In this document: positions 366 to 7,375 of the stretch, piece by piece
Layout: each line of letters starts with the position of its first letter
Numbering within the stretch: the first letter of the stretch is position 1
NCBI GenBank assembly: GCA_027028665.1
Contig: JALVIU010000271.1
Coordinates: forward strand, 1-9,638
Source: Candidatus Atribacteria bacterium
GTDB taxonomy: Bacteria > Atribacterota > JALVIU01
Length of the DNA stretch: 9,638 bases
Reading direction: 5' to 3'
Notes under the pieces: generated by a model
Seen by the model: only the letters and a program-made list of their open reading frames with translations
Databases searched by the model: none
What the model was told of the DNA's origin: nothing
Made by a program: the position numbers and the translations under genes

Positions 366-1247
366 TTACTCAAGATTTTGAATCTGCTCCCTTATCTTCT
401 CAAGGCTGCTCTTCATATCAACAACCATATGGGAGATCTCAGAATTTGGGCTTTTGGACCCAATAGTATTTACCTCTCTATTCATCTCTTGAATTAAAAA
501 GTCCAATCTTCTCCCTACAGGGAGATCTTCTACAAGTAAATCCCTAAGGTGATTTAAGTGAACAAAAAGACGAAGAATTTCTTCTGTTATATCGCTCTTT
601 TCTGAATATATAGCGATTTCTTCCTCCAATCGCTCCGAATCTGTAGAAAAGGCATCAGTAAGCTTCTCTATTCTCTTCTTTAATTTTTCCTTATATTCCA
701 ATAAAAATATATCCTTCTTACTCTCAATCTTTCTAAGTGTTTCTTCGAATTGATCCACCAGGGAAAGAATACCCTTAGCCAGGGCTTCTCCCTCCCTTTT
801 TCTTTCTTTCACAAGATAGGAAAGGGCCTCTATGAATACCTTTTCTATAGCGGACTTTAGCTCCTCATCTATTTCTTTTTTATCCCTAAGTCGTATTATC
901 CCTGGAAATGTAGATATATGCTGTAAAAGATCTTTATCACTTATATCTAAAAATTCTCCGAGTTTTTGGTAAGATTCATAATAGGCCTTTGCCAGGTCAA
1001 GATCGAGATCTATTGTATCAATAGATGCTCTCTTTACATTTTCGTAAGTAATTAAACAATTTATCCTACCCCTCTTTATTTTCTTTGAAAGGAGATCTTC
1101 CAGTCTCTTTTCAAGTTCAAGAGAGTTCCAGGGAAGTTTTAAGGAGAAACTTATAAATCTGTGATTTACAGATTTTATCTCCACAGATATAATAAACTCT
1201 TCTGTCTCTATCTTTGCCTGTCCAAAACCTGTCATACTGTATGGCAT
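366..1247 (-). CDS. yicC: YicC family endoribonuclease-like protein
   Basis: This 293-aa protein belongs to the YicC/YloC family. The E. coli member has been described as an endoribonuclease acting in RNA turnover; B. subtilis YloC is the counterpart. The N-terminal YicC domain (about 1-155) begins [11 protein letters not shown] and includes [10 protein letters not shown] (22-31), both hallmark segments. The C-terminal DUF1732 domain (about 205-293) carries [13 protein letters not shown] (219-231), [19 protein letters not shown] (248-266) and the closing [10 protein letters not shown]. The middle is charged and helical. The start at 1247 is chosen because MPYSMTGFG matches the family N-terminus and because a strong promoter ends 6 nt before it. 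There is no Shine-Dalgarno sequence, consistent with a leaderless message. The stop lies 14 bp before the remA TTG, so it is the first gene of a compact operon with remA and gmk. Confidence 0.95.
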
Positions 1248-1253
1248 AGTTTA

Positions 1254-1282
1254 ATTTTAAAGAAATATTGAGAAAATGTCAA
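1254..1282 (-). promoter_or_regulatory. Sigma70-type promoter of yicC-remA-gmk (leaderless)
   Basis: Read on the minus strand, a perfect -35 box TTGACA (1282-1277) is followed by a 17-nt spacer and a -10 box TAAAAT (1259-1254). Only 6 nt (TAAACT) separate the -10 box from the yicC ATG at 1247, so the expected transcription start falls on the A of the start codon. No ribosome binding site is visible. A leaderless transcript is an inference from this spacing. Confidence 0.85.
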
Positions 1283-1356
1283 GTTTTTTTATCTAAATTA
1301 GACATATTTAGAAATATTTAAAAATATCTATCCAAAATGCTACCTTTTATTATTTT

Positions 1357-1455
1357 AACTTATTTTATGCAAAATTAAAGGCCTCCATAACCGTATATTA
1401 CATGAAATATATAATATACGGAAGATAAATTTATCTTTTTATTCTAAAATAAGTT
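1357..1455. repeat. Nested inverted repeats sharing one centre, divergent intergenic region
   Basis: Two perfect inverted repeats have exactly the same centre, position 1406. The outer arms are AACTTATTTTA (1357-1367) and TAAAATAAGTT (1445-1455), 11 bp each. The inner arms are CCGTATATTA (1391-1400) and TAATATACGG (1412-1421), 10 bp each with an 11-nt loop. Next to the inner right arm lies a 16-bp uninterrupted palindrome, AAGATAAATTTATCTT (1422-1437). The block sits between the yicC promoter and the promoter of the rightward sugar operon. It could be an operator array, a cruciform-forming element or a small structured RNA; the sequence alone does not decide. Apart from this block and the two promoters, I see no gene in 1248-1553. 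Confidence 0.6.
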
Positions 1456-1485: not shown

Positions 1486-1514
1486 TTGACTTTAGGAAAT
1501 TATTGGTGTATTAT
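1486..1514 (+). promoter_or_regulatory. Promoter of the rightward sugar ABC operon
   Basis: A -35 box TTGACT (1486-1491) and a -10 box TATTAT (1509-1514) are separated by 17 nt. The expected start of transcription is about 1520-1522, giving a leader of about 33 nt before the ATG at 1554. The leader contains a strong ribosome binding site AAGGAGGG (1537-1544), about 10 nt from the ATG. Confidence 0.75.
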
Positions 1515-1553: not shown

Positions 1554-3107
1554 ATGAAGAAGTTTTTGGTTTTAAGTCTCATTTTTGTATTGGTTTTTGC
1601 TCTGTCAAGTTTGGCATTTGGTATTGATCCTAATAGGGACTATAGAGGGGTAACTATTAGGATCACCGTAAATCAGGCTGGCAAAGAAGGAGCAATATCT
1701 GGTCCTCTGTATAAAGCCGCAAAAATATGGGAAGAACAGACAGGTGGAAAAGTAGAAGTAGTAGAGATCCCATTCACATCTCACTATTCCAAAATGATGG
1801 AAGACCTTGTAACAGGTGCAGGAAACTTCGATGCATCTATGATAGGTTCATGGTGGCTTGGCGATTTAATAGCAGGAGATTTTGTAGTACCTATCGATCA
1901 ATATTACAACAAAGGGACACATCCATATTGGGATAAAGACTGGTTACCACCATCTCTTCAGATTCTCCACAAATGGGGAGACAAGTGGTATGGTGTACCA
2001 AACGATTCCGATGGCCAGATCCTTTACTACAGAGATGATATATTAAGAAATCCAGAATATCAGAAGAAATTTAAAGAAAAATATGGATACGACCTTCCAG
2101 TGCCTCCAAAGACATGGCAACAGACCTTAGATATTGCGAAATTCTTCACAGGATGGGATTGGAGCGGAGATGGCAAACCTGACTACGGTTTTGTAATGCA
2201 TCTTAAGGTTGGTGGACAGGGCATGTTCCACTTCATGTCGCTCTCTGCGCCATTTGTCCTTAACCCAGAAAACCCAAAACTCTACTGGTTCGACCCAGAA
2301 AATATGAAACCTCTTATCAAGTCTCCTGGACACAAAAAGGCATTGGAGTTCTTATTAGAGCTCGCAAAAACAGGACCAAAGGCACAGACCTCCTGGGATC
2401 TTGGTGAGGCATGGGATTTCTTTATGAAGGGTAATGCCCTAATGACATTTAGTTGGGGCGATGTAGGATCCTTAGTACAGGATCCTAAAAGAAGTAAGAT
2501 CAGAGGAAAACTTGGTTGTTCTGTAATTCCAGGAGTATTAGAATCTTATGATGAGGTACATAACAAATGGGTAAAATTTGATAAAAATAACCCAAATGTA
2601 GTAGGAAATACTACAGGTGGAAGCTGGCATGGTGTAATATTCAAACACTCCAAGCATCCAGAAGCTGTATATGACTATCTATCTCTCATGGCAACAAAAG
2701 ATTTCTCCCTCTGGAATGTGGCAAACGGTTGGACAGGTGTTGATCCAGGATGGAAGATTCACTTCTTAAGACCAATCGGTATCGCATCTATAAGAGATTA
2801 TATTCACTATGGTTGGGATCCAGGAGATGTTGTAGAATACCTGGCTGCATACTATGAAAACTTCTATGCAAAGATTATGTTCCCATACCTTATGATCCCA
2901 AGCACATTTGAATACTGGAATGCGCTTGATGTCCATCTCTCTGAGGCTGTAACAGGTCAAAAGAGTGTAGATGCTGCACTTGATGCAATATACAAAGACT
3001 GGGAGAATATTACAAACAACTACGGAAGAAAAGAACTCTTAAAACTTTATAGAGATTCTATAAATTGGACAAAAGAAGACGACGCAGAATACAAAAAATT
3101 CCATTAA
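1554..3107 (+). CDS. CUT1 ABC transporter periplasmic sugar-binding protein (517 aa)
   Basis: This is the extracytoplasmic receptor of a carbohydrate ABC importer. It should capture a sugar or oligosaccharide in the periplasm and deliver it to the two permeases that follow. Residues 1-23 form a signal peptide (MKKF, a hydrophobic core, then S-L-A-F-G) with probable cleavage after Gly23; there is no lipobox Cys, so the protein should be soluble. The mature chain shows the family-1 solute-binding pattern: AAKIWEEQTGGKVEVVEIPF (55-74), FDASMIGSWW (92-101), WYGVPNDSDGQILYYRDDIL (145-164) and a late GGSWHGVIF segment. It is longer than the usual 400-450 aa. Residues 202-210, DWSGDGKPD, resemble an EF-hand-like calcium loop. 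The many aromatic residues fit sugar stacking. The ATG is supported by AAGGAGGG. A terminator-like hairpin follows the gene. The substrate cannot be read from the sequence. Confidence 0.9.
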   Translation: MKKFLVLSLIFVLVFALSSLAFGIDPNRDYRGVTIRITVNQAGKEGAISGPLYKAAKIWEEQTGGKVEVVEIPFTSHYSKMMEDLVTGAGNFDASMIGSWWLGDLIAGDFVVPIDQYYNKGTHPYWDKDWLPPSLQILHKWGDKWYGVPNDSDGQILYYRDDILRNPEYQKKFKEKYGYDLPVPPKTWQQTLDIAKFFTGWDWSGDGKPDYGFVMHLKVGGQGMFHFMSLSAPFVLNPENPKLYWFDPENMKPLIKSPGHKKALEFLLELAKTGPKAQTSWDLGEAWDFFMKGNALMTFSWGDVGSLVQDPKRSKIRGKLGCSVIPGVLESYDEVHNKWVKFDKNNPNVVGNTTGGSWHGVIFKHSKHPEAVYDYLSLMATKDFSLWNVANGWTGVDPGWKIHFLRPIGIASIRDYIHYGWDPGDVVEYLAAYYENFYAKIMFPYLMIPSTFEYWNALDVHLSEAVTGQKSVDAALDAIYKDWENITNNYGRKELLKLYRDSINWTKEDDAEYKKFH

Positions 3108-3123
3108 TAAGTTAGAATGAATA

Positions 3124-3157
3124 TATAAAAAAGGGGGCATATGCCCCCTTTTTTATA
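3124..3157 (+). terminator. Intercistronic rho-independent terminator after the binding-protein gene
   Basis: This is a perfect 34-bp palindrome with a GGGGGC/GCCCCC core flanked by A6 and T6, giving a GC stem and a U-run on the plus strand. It lies 17 nt after the binding-protein stop and ends 16 nt before the permease ATG. It most likely terminates most transcripts, or protects the 3' end of the binding-protein mRNA, while partial read-through expresses the permeases at a lower level. Confidence 0.88.
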
Positions 3158-3173
3158 ACCTTCGGGAGGACAC

Positions 3174-4034
3174 ATGAAAGAAAATAAATTAATGAAAAGT
3201 CTCTTTGTACTTCCATCTGTCATATGGATTCTAACCTTTACTATCTTCCCTCTAATCTACATATTTTATTTAAGTACCCATAAATTTAAATTTGGCAAAA
3301 TAAGAGGATATATTGGTCTTAGTAATTACATAAAATTCTTTCATGATAGTACAGTGTTAAATGCTGTAATGGTAACTTTATTTATAATAGTAGTTGCGAT
3401 AATAGCAGAACTTACTCTCGGGCTTTTTATGGCGTGGCTTGTGGATAAACCACTTAGAAATATAAAGATATTTAGAACTATTTTTTCTTTACCGCTTTTT
3501 GCAACACCTGTAGCTGTAGCGTTTTTATTTATTACTATATATTACGAAGAAGGTGGGCCTATGAATTCTATTCTGGGCCTCCTTGGGATACATAAAATTC
3601 CCTGGCTTTCCAACCCATTTTGGGCAAAGATCTCTGTCGCTATAGTAGATATATGGCAGTGGACACCCTTCTGTTTCATTATTTTCTTAGCTGCCCTTCA
3701 ATCTATACCTCAAGAAATGTATGAGGCAGCATATCTTGAGACAAAATCGAGATGGAGAATATTCTGGGGTGTGAGCTTTCCCATGATTTCTTCTACCTTT
3801 ATACTTGTAATCATATTAAGGGTTATGGAAGCAATAAAGATATTTGATATCCCTGCAGTTTTAACTATAGGTGGGCCAGGAAGGGCTACAGAGGTATACT
3901 CTTTCCTTATATACAGAACAGGTCTAAAATTTTTCAATTTAGGGTATGCCTCTACAATGGGAGTAATAATGCTTATCGTAGAGATACCTCTCATAATGAT
4001 TATAGTAAAATCTTTTAGGAAGGTGGTATCATGA
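3174..4034 (+). CDS. CUT1 ABC transporter permease, MalF-like (divergent EAA loop)
   Basis: This is an inner-membrane permease subunit of the sugar importer. The 286-aa chain shows about six hydrophobic segments (roughly 9-31, 62-90, 101-123, 150-173, 203-220, 255-277) and the MalF-type order: an FVLPSVIWIL start, GLSNYIKFF (48-56), IPWLSNP before the EAA loop, and FDIPAVLTIGGPGRATE (224-240). The cytoplasmic EAA loop that docks the ATPase is at 184-203, reading EAAYLETKSRW...VSFP. The almost invariant Gly of EAA-X3-G is Thr190 here, and the usual DGA is ETK. The start at 3174 is set by GGGAGG (3164-3169), 4 nt upstream. The stop overlaps the next permease start as ATGA. It is expressed only by read-through of the hairpin at 3124-3157 unless an unseen promoter exists. 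Confidence 0.92.
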   Translation: MKENKLMKSLFVLPSVIWILTFTIFPLIYIFYLSTHKFKFGKIRGYIGLSNYIKFFHDSTVLNAVMVTLFIIVVAIIAELTLGLFMAWLVDKPLRNIKIFRTIFSLPLFATPVAVAFLFITIYYEEGGPMNSILGLLGIHKIPWLSNPFWAKISVAIVDIWQWTPFCFIIFLAALQSIPQEMYEAAYLETKSRWRIFWGVSFPMISSTFILVIILRVMEAIKIFDIPAVLTIGGPGRATEVYSFLIYRTGLKFFNLGYASTMGVIMLIVEIPLIMIIVKSFRKVVS

Positions 4035-4870
4035 AAGCAACATCTACAGAAAAAATTATAGTTTATACAGTACTTATAGTTTTGGCCCTCTGGGCACTCT
4101 TTCCCTTTTACTGGGCATTTGTAAATTCTATAAAAGTACCCTCTCAAATCTTTGCCAAATCCTGGATCCCCATAGTACAATTTAAGCCCACCCTTCACAA
4201 CTGGCAGATAGAACTTAAAACACCCTTAGTGCTAAAGGCAATGAAAAATTCTACTATAGTTGCAGTAGTATCCACATTGGTTGCACTTATTCTCGGAACC
4301 ATGGTGGGATTTGCATTGAGTGTATTTAATTATAGAGGTGCATTTAAAAACGTGGATATTTATATATTCTTTCTCACACAGAGGATCCTTGCACCTGCAG
4401 TAGTGCTCATACCTCTATATATAATTATGAAAAATCTTCATCTCCTTGACACTGTATGGGCATTAATTATCGTAAATATTACATTTAACATACCAATGGC
4501 TGTTGTAATAATGAGAGAGATGTTTAAATCTATACCAAAAGAGATTATGGAGGCAGCACTTGTAGATGGGGCATCCTGGGGAAAGATTTTTTCAAATGTA
4601 GCAATTCCCCTTGCAGCACCTGGGCTTGTAGCAACCTCTATGATAATATTCTCATATGTGTGGAATGAGTTCCTCTTTGCCCTTAGCTTCTCATTTACAA
4701 AAGCAGCAACACTTCCTGTTATAGTAGCAGGCACCCAGCAAAACAGAGGTATAGAGTTTTGGTATGTAGGAACCCGTGCATTATTGGTTATGATTTTACC
4801 TGTAATATTTTCACTATTGGTTCAAAGGTATCTTGTAAAAGGCTTAACATTTGGTGCAGTAAAAGAATAA
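4031..4870 (+). CDS. CUT1 ABC transporter permease, MalG-like
   Basis: This is the second membrane subunit of the same importer, 279 aa. Hydrophobic segments lie at about 9-31, 72-98, 108-133, 141-161, 194-218 and 246-266. Typical MalG-side features are WALFPFYWAFVNSIK (21-35), the canonical EAA loop EAALVDGASWGKIFSNVAIP (174-193) with the expected Gly180, and the C-terminal QRYLVKGLTFGAVKE that such permeases use to contact the ATPase. The ATG overlaps the previous stop (ATGA), with AGGAAGGTGG just upstream, so translation is probably coupled. No ATPase gene follows. The operon ends here and meets the convergent regulator gene 28 bp on, with a shared hairpin at the junction. Confidence 0.94.
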   Translation: MKATSTEKIIVYTVLIVLALWALFPFYWAFVNSIKVPSQIFAKSWIPIVQFKPTLHNWQIELKTPLVLKAMKNSTIVAVVSTLVALILGTMVGFALSVFNYRGAFKNVDIYIFFLTQRILAPAVVLIPLYIIMKNLHLLDTVWALIIVNITFNIPMAVVIMREMFKSIPKEIMEAALVDGASWGKIFSNVAIPLAAPGLVATSMIIFSYVWNEFLFALSFSFTKAATLPVIVAGTQQNRGIEFWYVGTRALLVMILPVIFSLLVQRYLVKGLTFGAVKE

Positions 4871-4875
4871 ACACG

Positions 4876-4906
4876 GTAAATAAGGGGTGCCATGCCCCTT
4901 ATTTAC
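4876..4906. terminator. Shared hairpin between convergent gene ends
   Basis: Perfect 12-bp arms GTAAATAAGGGG (4876-4887) and CCCCTTATTTAC (4895-4906) enclose a 7-nt loop. The hairpin begins 5 nt after the permease stop, and its right arm contains the last codons and the TAA of the convergent regulator gene. Neither strand has a strong U-run: the plus side continues ATCCACAGG, the minus side CGTGTTTATTCTTTT. It is a plausible bidirectional but weak terminator, or an mRNA 3'-end stabiliser. Confidence 0.65.
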
Positions 4907-5948
4907 ATCCACAGGACTTTCTTATTATAAGTTTTACTGGAATCTTTTCCCTTTGAGGAACCCTATCCCCTTTTAGAAGTTTTATAATAAATAGCGCAGC
5001 TGTTGAAGCCATTTTATCGAAATTCTGTCTTACAGTAGTGATAGATGGGTAGAAAAATTGTGCTACTCTTCTATCATCAAAGCCTGTTACCTTAACATCC
5101 TCAGGCACTTTTATCCCATGTTTATAAAAGAAACTTACACCTGCTGCTGCCAAAATATCATGGCAAAATGCTATAGTATCATATCTCTTGGCTTTTATCC
5201 CTCTTACAACCTCTAAAAGGGCATATTCCAGATTTGAAAATTGCAAGAAATCAATATCCCTTCCTATGCCATCTCTTATACCTTCAAATCTCTCTCGTAC
5301 ACTTGATATAATCAAATCTTCTTCTGATAAAAATAAAACATTTTTTACATTATGTTTTTCTTTTAGATGCTTTCCAAGGCAATAAGCTCCTTGATAATTA
5401 TTAGATTCCACTACAGGAACAGATAGATCCTCTAAGCCTCTATCTATAAAAACAATAGGAAAATTCTCATCTATAAGCCTTGTAAAAAATTTGCTTTGAG
5501 AAAGATCTACTTTAGGAGGAAAAATCAAACCATCTACTCCATAAGTCAGTAATCGTTTTATTTTTTTCTCTATAGATTCAAAGGTATATTCCTCCATTTC
5601 TAACATTATAGGATGAACTGAAAATTCTAAAAGGGTACGTGTAAGTCCTGCCAGAAGAGCTATACCTCTTGTATCAGCAAGGTCATCTATTAGAATTCCT
5701 ACGCGAAGATTTTTATTCCCTATATGTTTTGCACCTTCTGCAACATATGTTCCAAGACCTGGAATCCTTATCACTACTCCTTCATAAACCAGACTATCTA
5801 CTGCTTTTCTGGCAGTCATTCGGCTTACGCCAAAGGTAGAAGCCAAATTGTTTTCAGATGGAATCCTATCTCCAGGTCTATATCGTCCCTTTATAATCTC
5901 TTCCTTTATAGATCTTGCAATTTTTTTATACGCTACCTCTGGTACCAT
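4899..5948 (-). CDS. GntR/LacI-sensor chimeric transcription regulator (AraR-like architecture)
   Basis: This 349-aa protein should be a sugar-responsive DNA-binding regulator, most likely a repressor. Residues 1-72 are a GntR winged helix: RYRPGDRIPSENNLASTFGV (22-41), SRMTARKAVDSL (42-53) and the wing RIPGLGTYV (61-69). Residues 81-349 are a LacI/periplasmic-binding-type effector domain: LRVGILIDD (81-89), GVDGLIFPP (137-145), PIVFIDRG (164-171), VESNNYQGAY (180-189), FCHDILAAAG (261-270), VTGFDD (287-292) and PSITTVRQ (301-308). This fusion is the layout of B. subtilis AraR, but the effector here is unknown. The ATG at 5948 follows AAGGAG by 5 nt. The gene lies between two sugar importers, downstream of one and convergent with the other. 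A large dyad over its promoter suggests autoregulation. I give no symbol, since arabinose specificity is not shown. Confidence 0.92.
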   Translation of the reverse strand: MVPEVAYKKIARSIKEEIIKGRYRPGDRIPSENNLASTFGVSRMTARKAVDSLVYEGVVIRIPGLGTYVAEGAKHIGNKNLRVGILIDDLADTRGIALLAGLTRTLLEFSVHPIMLEMEEYTFESIEKKIKRLLTYGVDGLIFPPKVDLSQSKFFTRLIDENFPIVFIDRGLEDLSVPVVESNNYQGAYCLGKHLKEKHNVKNVLFLSEEDLIISSVRERFEGIRDGIGRDIDFLQFSNLEYALLEVVRGIKAKRYDTIAFCHDILAAAGVSFFYKHGIKVPEDVKVTGFDDRRVAQFFYPSITTVRQNFDKMASTAALFIIKLLKGDRVPQREKIPVKLIIRKSCGCK

Positions 5949-5957
5949 TTAAGCTCC

Positions 5958-6006
5958 TTGTATATTTTTATTTATTATATTATATATCAAAAATAAAAAT
6001 ATACAA
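5958..6006. promoter_or_regulatory. Dyad operator over the regulator promoter
   Basis: A 49-bp near-palindrome centred on 5982 has perfect 16-bp arms, TTGTATATTTTTATTT (5958-5973) and AAATAAAAATATACAA (5991-6006); the middle is also largely symmetric (ATAT pairing with ATAT). On the minus strand the arm at 6006 contains a candidate -35 TTGTAT (6006-6001). After a 16-nt spacer comes TATAAT (5984-5979), so the expected start is near 5972, inside the other arm, just before the AAGGAG site. Binding here would block transcription. That the regulator itself binds is an inference. Confidence 0.6.
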
Positions 6007-6043
6007 AATAAGCCCTCTATTTTCCTAATAGAGGGCTTATTTT
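6005..6043 (-). terminator. Rho-independent terminator of the minus-strand sugar operon
   Basis: Perfect 17-bp arms (6005-6021 and 6027-6043), with core AGCCCTCTATT/AATAGAGGGCT, enclose a 5-nt loop. Read on the minus strand, the stem closes with TTTT and continues into a T-rich stretch. It starts about 19 nt beyond the binding-protein stop and separates that operon from the regulator gene. T-runs exist on the plus strand too, so it may work in both directions. Confidence 0.88.
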
Positions 6044-6061
6044 TATTTTACAAATGCTAAA

Positions 6062-7375
6062 CTATTTAGATGCCTCTTCCTTAAAAGCCTTGTCTAACGC
6101 TTGTTGCACTTCGTTTTGTGCATCTCTCAAAGCTTGCTCAGGTGTCTTTTTTCCATAGATTGCATCATTCCATGCCTCTGTGAGTTTATCCCACAAAAGC
6201 GCACCTACAGGAATAACTGGGCGACAGTGTGCATTTGGACCACTGAATAGATCGTAGAATAATTTCTGTCTTGGATCTTTTTTTGCAAGAGCCTCTGTTG
6301 CTGCTTTTAAAGCTGCAAAATGAGAGGTTTTTTCAGCATATATTTCTTCTCCATGTGTAACCATCCATACCAGGAACTTAGCTGCTTCCTTAGGATGCTT
6401 TGCTCCTTTTGGGATAACCAAACTCCATCCGCCTGCCCATGTACTATTCTTTTCTCCCCCTTCCGGATAAGGAATTGGCGCAATCCCATATTCAAATCCC
6501 TTTGGAGCAAAGGCGTCAAGTTGACTTATAAGCCAGTTTCCATCAACTCTCATTGCTTCTTTGCTTATCATAAATGGATCTACAGGAACAGAACCACCCC
6601 TGTATGAAGAGAAGAATGCATCTATATTTTTTATTCCGTATTTTTTAGCATATCCCACTTCCCATTTAAGTGCAGCCAGGATCTTTGGATCATCTGCAAA
6701 TACAAGTTTTTTTGTCGCAGGATCGTAGAACTTTCCACCAAACGCCCAACCCCATGTATAGTGCCATCCCTGGCCTCTCCATGGAACAAAACCTATTTGC
6801 AAAACCCTATTACCCTTAATCATGGTAAGTTTTGCTGCATATTCATCCAGTTCTTTTATAGTTGTAGGAGGCTTATTTGGGTCAAGTCCTGCCTTCTTAA
6901 AAAGTGTTTTGTTATAGTAAAGAACACGTGCATCTGTATCCCAGGGTAAGGCATAGAGTTTGCCTTTATAAGTTGCCTCTTTTATTGTAAAATCAAAAAA
7001 CTTTGCCTTTAACGCAGGTATATCTACTCCAAGCTCTTCTAAGTAATCCTGCAATGGCTCCAAAACACCAAAATGTGCCCTTTGTGCTACTGTGAATCTA
7101 TCAAGATAATAGACATCTGGACCAGTACCTGCAGCAACTGCTGTCATAAGTTTTGTAACTTCTGTCTCATGCCCTGGAACCAAAACAACTTTCACATGGA
7201 TATCTTTATGGGTGCTATTAAACTTTGCCACTGCCTCTTCTATAGCAGATTTGGAGACCTTGTCAACTATACAATGCCAGAAAGTAACCTGAACAGGTTC
7301 AGAAGCATATGCAAAGATTCCAAATACACCTAAGAGCAAAGCAGACAATAAGATACTTGCAAATAACTTTTTCAT
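6062..7375 (-). CDS. CUT1 ABC transporter periplasmic sugar-binding protein (437 aa)
   Basis: This is the extracytoplasmic receptor of the second sugar importer. A signal peptide (MKKLFASILL, then a hydrophobic run to F-A-Y-A) should be cleaved after Ala24; there is no lipobox Cys, so a soluble periplasmic protein is expected. Family-1 binding-protein features include VTFWHCIVD just after cleavage, HVKVVLVPGH, MTAVAAGTGPDVYYLD, GKLYALPWDTDARVLYYNK and WAGGWSLVIPKGAKHPKEAA. Length is typical. The frame stays open to an upstream ATG at 7405, but the start at 7375 is preferred: an AAGGAGGG-type ribosome binding site (7382-7389) stands 6-7 nt before it, inside the would-be extension, and the extension would spoil the signal peptide. 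It is the last gene of an operon with two permeases and a probable GH38 enzyme, so mannose-containing oligosaccharides are a reasonable but unproven ligand. Confidence 0.92.
   Translation of the reverse strand: MKKLFASILLSALLLGVFGIFAYASEPVQVTFWHCIVDKVSKSAIEEAVAKFNSTHKDIHVKVVLVPGHETEVTKLMTAVAAGTGPDVYYLDRFTVAQRAHFGVLEPLQDYLEELGVDIPALKAKFFDFTIKEATYKGKLYALPWDTDARVLYYNKTLFKKAGLDPNKPPTTIKELDEYAAKLTMIKGNRVLQIGFVPWRGQGWHYTWGWAFGGKFYDPATKKLVFADDPKILAALKWEVGYAKKYGIKNIDAFFSSYRGGSVPVDPFMISKEAMRVDGNWLISQLDAFAPKGFEYGIAPIPYPEGGEKNSTWAGGWSLVIPKGAKHPKEAAKFLVWMVTHGEEIYAEKTSHFAALKAATEALAKKDPRQKLFYDLFSGPNAHCRPVIPVGALLWDKLTEAWNDAIYGKKTPEQALRDAQNEVQQALDKAFKEEASK

What the first reader, a model, noticed from the sequence alone, without database searches (positions are those of the whole stretch)
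1357..1455. Nested, co-centred inverted repeats between divergent operons
An 11-bp perfect inverted repeat (1357-1367 / 1445-1455) and a 10-bp one (1391-1400 / 1412-1421) have exactly the same centre at 1406, and a 16-bp continuous palindrome abuts the inner right arm. Inner arm centres are 21 bp apart, two helical turns. A shared centre over 99 bp is hard to explain by AT-richness alone. It could be a multi-site operator for a looping regulator, a cruciform, a RemA-type wrapping site, or an unrecognised structured RNA.
Basis: partly seen in the sequence, partly recalled or inferred. Interest (0 to 1): 0.6.

Follow-up and report, generated by a model that had tools for sequence, protein, structure and literature searches.

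The report
Operator-like dyad upstream of sugar-importer promoter
Between two oppositely facing gene sets of a bacterium there is a real, well-formed mirror-image DNA motif, most likely a docking site for a sugar-sensing gene regulator; the larger repeat around it with the same centre is unusual but may well be luck, so the element is probably an ordinary control site.

Summary
The repeats are exactly as described: 11-bp arms 1357-1367/1445-1455, 10-bp arms 1391-1400/1412-1421 (12 of 13 pairs over 1391-1403/1409-1421), both centred on 1406, and a 16-bp palindrome at 1422-1437. Dinucleotide shuffles of the 306-bp intergenic region give an equally strong same-centre nest in 9 of 72,000, and any-centre nesting in 0.36%. 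That is rare locally, but up to about 0.08 same-centre and 2 any-centre nests are expected per genome, so a wide scan can find one by chance. No other copy exists in the assembly, and no close relative was available to test conservation. The dyad lies between, and outside, the predicted yicC and ABC-importer transcripts, centred about 115 bp upstream of the importer's predicted start. Best reading: the inner dyad is a regulator-binding site for the importer. The AraR-type regulator at 4899-5948 is the leading candidate on weak evidence: its own promoter carries a perfect 16-bp inverted repeat sharing GTATATT (sharing p about 0.04-0.12), and neither site fits the GntR/AraR consensus. The outer repeat may be chance. 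RemA wrapping, structured RNA, terminator and mobile element are not supported for the dyad.

The parts
1391..1421 (.). Inner dyad CCGTATATTACAT-GAAAT-ATATAATATACGG, the operator-like core
   Evidence: 12 of 13 pairs; perfect 10-bp arms; unique in the assembly at 0-1 mismatches
1357..1367 (.). Outer inverted repeat, left arm AACTTATTTTA
   Evidence: co-centred on 1406; may be chance
1445..1455 (.). Outer inverted repeat, right arm TAAAATAAGTT
1422..1437 (.). 16-bp palindrome AAGATAAATTTATCTT abutting the inner right arm
   Evidence: 4.5% of shuffles contain one this long
1254..1282 (-). Predicted yicC promoter TTGACA-17-TAAAAT, -10 six bases from the ATG
   Evidence: 11 of 12 consensus matches
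1486..1514 (+). Predicted ABC-importer promoter TTGACT-17-TATTAT
   Evidence: 10 of 12
1284..1377 (.). 10-bp-phased AT-rich direct repeats (ATATTTAgaaATATTTAaaaATATCTA core at 1304-1330)
   Evidence: window 1261-1377 has the highest lag-10 self-match in 182 kb of own genome; shuffle p 0.0004 for 1284-1400
1554..3107 (+). Sugar ABC solute-binding protein, first gene of the importer operon
   Evidence: Pfam SBP_bac_1, SBP_bac_8
366..1247 (-). yicC-type endoribonuclease gene
   Evidence: Pfam and TIGR00255
4899..5948 (-). AraR-type regulator (GntR HTH plus LacI-type sugar-binding domain), candidate protein for the dyad
5958..6006 (.). Dyad over the predicted promoter of the regulator gene, perfect 16-bp arms TTGTATATTTTTATTT
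   Evidence: 23-nt arms, 91%

Best explanation
The inner dyad (1391-1421) is a transcription-factor operator serving the sugar ABC-importer operon that starts at 1554. A dimeric or tetrameric regulator would bind the two half-sites, 21 bp or two helical turns apart, on one DNA face about 115 bp upstream of the importer's start site, and would act from there by contact or by looping to a second site. The leading candidate is the AraR-type regulator encoded at 4899-5948, downstream of the importer operon, whose own promoter carries a dyad with the same GTATATT core. Shown: the dyads, their rarity, the gene context, the regulator's domain make-up. Inferred: that a protein binds, which protein, the promoters, and the direction of control. 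The outer 11-bp repeat is left undecided, perhaps chance.
For: Exact compact dyad with arms two turns apart. It sits in a divergent promoter region, the usual place for operators, upstream of a sugar importer. A sugar-sensor (AraR-type) regulator is encoded just downstream of that operon, and its predicted promoter overlaps a perfect 16-bp inverted repeat. GTATATT-N8-38-AATATAC occurs exactly three times in the 1.79-Mb assembly: these two promoter regions and one inside a coding gene. In the same genome a ROK-type regulator gene has a 26-bp perfect palindrome just upstream of its start, so palindromes of this sort near regulator genes are normal here.
Against: Arm sharing with the regulator's dyad is weak once that dyad is given (4% by base shuffles, 12% by dinucleotide shuffles), was noticed after the fact, and the two sites differ in overall width (31 versus 49 bp). 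Neither fits the GntR consensus GT-Nx-AC with x of 3-4 (PMC4494728), and there is no AraR box in the region. No further copy in the genome: at up to 3 mismatches 44 hits against 54 for the reversed control. The 81% identical importer of a Thermotogaceae MAG lacks the site. No conservation evidence. The dyad is far from the predicted importer promoter for a simple repressor.
Confidence: 0.45

Rival explanations
1. Chance: an AT-rich (79% A+T) intergenic region with no dedicated function for the dyads, picked out because many windows and many patterns were looked at.
For: 11-bp arms occur in 13% of shuffles, compact 10-bp dyads in 8%, palindromes in 4.5%; any-centre nesting expected up to about 2 times per genome (scaled); unique in the genome; absent at the related importer and upstream of yicC in 29 phylum members.
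Against: Same-centre nest 9 of 72,000; none other in 68 intergenic stretches of the genome; folding z about -3.5 to -4.2.
Confidence: 0.33
2. A four-arm site in which inner and outer arms are both contacted by one symmetric assembly of a regulator of unknown identity.
For: An exact shared centre is what a symmetric protein assembly would give; no consensus for the local regulator.
Against: Outer arms carry one G:C pair each and lie 33.5 bp (about 3.2 turns) from the inner arms; no second copy.
Confidence: 0.1
3. Structured RNA or long leader: the 99 bp folds as an 11-bp stem enclosing two hairpins.
For: RNA fold z -3.5 on + strand, -3.1 on - strand.
Against: No Rfam match; both predicted transcripts start outside it and run away from it; no terminator; the folding excess is largely the inner dyad itself.
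Confidence: 0.06
4. RemA (DUF370) wrapping site or curved-DNA element of the yicC-remA promoter.
For: DUF370 gene at 85-351; 10-bp-phased AT repeats at 1284-1377, the strongest such signal in 182 kb, resembling the 7-bp protected, 3-bp spaced RemA pattern at PepsA (PMC8481266).
Against: Published RemA sites are direct, not inverted, repeats; the dyad region itself lacks 10-bp periodicity (best lags 5 and 16); the protein scores below NCBIfam's RemA cut-off (125.5 versus 140).
Confidence: 0.06

Closest known systems
AraR operators of Bacillus subtilis (AraR: GntR-type HTH plus LacI-type sensor)
   Same: Paired symmetric sites near sugar-import genes, with a regulator of the same two-domain make-up encoded nearby
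   Different: AraR boxes are 16-bp palindromes centred on GTACGTAC (PMC4218819); no such box here, and here the half-sites are 21 bp apart
ROK-type palindromic operators (example in this genome: L088:6255-6280)
   Same: Long AT-rich palindrome in a sugar-regulator promoter region
   Different: Different sequence (TAAATTAGTTTAT arms, no spacer); the assignment of that palindrome to the ROK protein is itself inference
RemA binding regions (PepsA, B. subtilis)
   Same: AT-rich promoter-upstream DNA; DUF370 gene nearby
   Different: RemA protects direct repeats of 10-bp period, not inverted repeats (PMC8481266)

Membership tests
GntR-family operator (HutC/FadR type) | Palindrome GT-Nx-AC with x of 3-4 (NyGTNxACNy) | tested here: not met
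   Left arm reads GT-ATATT-AC (x=5), right arm lacks AC; consensus from PMC4494728
AraR operator | Match to the box ATTTGTACGTACAAAT | tested here: not met
   No WTTGTACGTACAAW match within 3 mismatches in 1248-1553 or 5949-6061
AraR operator | Regulator with GntR HTH and LacI-type sensor encoded nearby | tested here: met
   4899-5948: Pfam GntR 1e-21, Peripla_BP_3 2e-19; AraR chains among PDB matches
AraR operator | Direct binding by the regulator | not testable with these tools
   Needs EMSA or footprinting
RemA binding region | AT-rich direct repeats at 10-bp period | tested here: inconclusive
   Not met in 1357-1455; met in adjoining 1284-1400
Structured RNA family | Match to an Rfam model | tested here: not met
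   0 matches at gathering threshold
Structured RNA family | Compensatory changes in relatives | not testable with these tools
   No close relative held
Intrinsic terminator | G+C-rich hairpin followed by T run | tested here: not met
   None in 1200-1600
MITE / insertion element | Further copies in the genome | tested here: not met
   Own-genome search with 1248-1560 found only short AT-rich matches besides itself

The most novel reading that the evidence does not exclude
A four-arm, co-centred operator spanning 99 bp, contacted symmetrically by one regulator assembly (AraR-type or other) that folds or wraps the divergent promoter region and couples a sugar importer to the yicC-remA operon.
Probability: 0.05. 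Interest if true: 0.45.

Novelty: new member of a known kind. Interest (0 to 1): 0.2.

Why it matters
If the dyad is an operator, it and the 5958-6006 dyad give testable sites for the AraR-type regulator of this genome, for which no binding site was found in the papers read here. Otherwise it shows that AT-rich divergent promoters can produce striking dyads by chance. It does not change any known class of regulatory element.

Tried and rejected
Close relatives: none in genus or family; genome contigs gave only four importer relatives, at best 81% identical. Upstream regions of yicC in 29 phylum members: nothing beyond 11-15 bp AT matches. Exact dyad in viral contigs: the 20-mer has none; the relaxed arm pattern hit 8 contigs, not pursued, taken as unrelated. 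YicC and regulator in viral contigs: none. Genome regulon by 3-mismatch search: below control. Regulator homologues (at most 30% identity) show no matching dyad upstream. Small ORF across the region: none convincing. MITE, terminator and known RNA rejected as in the membership table.

Full report
Observation. The outer arms 1357-1367 and 1445-1455, the inner arms 1391-1400 and 1412-1421, and the palindrome 1422-1437 are all perfect, and both repeats are centred on 1406.0. The inner dyad extends to 12 of 13 pairs with a 5-nt loop. Inner arm centres are 21 bp apart.

Chance. The region 1248-1553 is 79% A+T. Single features of this size are common in shuffles: an 11-bp arm pair 13%, a compact 10-bp dyad 8%, a 16-bp palindrome 4.5%. 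The shared centre is the rare part: 0.08% with the inner dyad fixed, and 9 of 72,000 for any same-centre nest with total arms >=21, against 262 of 72,000 for any-centre nesting. In 197 kb of the same genome, 68 intergenic stretches, this is the only same-centre nest of total arm length 17 or more. Scaling to about 620 intergenic stretches gives at most about 0.08 same-centre and 2 any-centre nests per genome. The pattern was chosen after reading, so the real weight is lower than the nominal p.

Surroundings. Left, on the minus strand: yicC (366-1247), a DUF370/RemA-like gene (85-351) and the start of a further gene at the contig end. Right, on the plus strand: a sugar ABC importer, 1554-4870. 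Then an AraR-type regulator (4899-5948, minus) and a second ABC importer, preceded by a gene end with a GH38 C-terminal domain. The window is a whole contig of a 413-contig assembly. Predicted promoters are TTGACA-17-TAAAAT for yicC (1282-1254) and TTGACT-17-TATTAT for the importer (1486-1514). The dyads lie between them and outside both predicted transcripts.

Which protein? The regulator at 4899-5948 has a GntR HTH and a LacI-type sensor, the AraR arrangement. Its own upstream region holds a 49-bp dyad, 5958-6006, with perfect 16-bp arms TTGTATATTTTTATTT; by reading the sequence I place it over a TTGTAT-16-TATAAT promoter, which the consensus scan does not list. Both dyads contain GTATATT...AATATAC. 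That pair with an 8-38 bp gap occurs three times in the genome: these two, and one inside a coding gene on contig C268. The shared 7-mer is only weak evidence: shuffled arms share one in 4% (bases) or 12% (dinucleotides) of trials. Neither dyad matches the GntR consensus (PMC4494728) or the AraR box (PMC4218819). A genome search at up to 3 mismatches gave 44 hits against 54 for the reversed control, so no regulon is visible.

Precedent in this genome: the ROK-type regulator gene at L088 5099-6223 (minus) has a 26-bp perfect palindrome at 6255-6280, just upstream of its start. The ROK assignment is by sequence reading; no profile was run on it.

Other readings. RNA folding of 1340-1460 gives z -3.5 (+) and -3.1 (-), but there is no Rfam match and no predicted promoter would transcribe it. 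RemA: published sites are AT-rich direct repeats with 7-bp protection and 3-bp spacing (PMC8481266). The dyad itself lacks a 10-bp period, but the segment beside it has the highest lag-10 self-match of 182 kb own-genome sequence (window 1261-1377), shuffle p 0.0004 for 1284-1400. The DUF370 protein is below NCBIfam's RemA cut-off.

Conservation. The own genus and family hold only this genome. The closest importer, 81% identical in a Thermotogaceae MAG, lacks the dyad. YicC upstream regions of 29 phylum members show nothing comparable. These are distant, so absence is weak evidence.

Verdict. Real dyads, locally unlikely by composition. Most likely an ordinary operator at the inner dyad (0.45), with chance close behind (0.33). 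The regulator assignment is a lead, not a result.

Noticed in passing
1284-1377: 10-bp-phased AT-rich direct repeats, the strongest lag-10 signal in 182 kb of the genome, next to a DUF370/RemA-like gene; resembles the RemA footprint period.
   Followed up: partly
5958-6006: 49-bp dyad with perfect 16-bp arms over the presumed promoter of the AraR-type regulator gene.
   Followed up: partly
L088:6255-6280: 26-bp perfect palindrome just upstream of a ROK-type regulator gene, operator-like.
   Followed up: no
1247-1282: Predicted yicC -10 box lies six bases before the ATG, which would make the mRNA leaderless.
   Followed up: no
L014:7500-8000: Upstream of the 81% identical importer of a Thermotogaceae MAG there is a LacI-type GAAAACGTTTTC palindrome; that gene cluster also carries three sugar-kinase-like ORFs.
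   Followed up: no
6005-6043: Bidirectional terminator-like hairpin of 17 pairs between the regulator and the second binding-protein gene.
   Followed up: no
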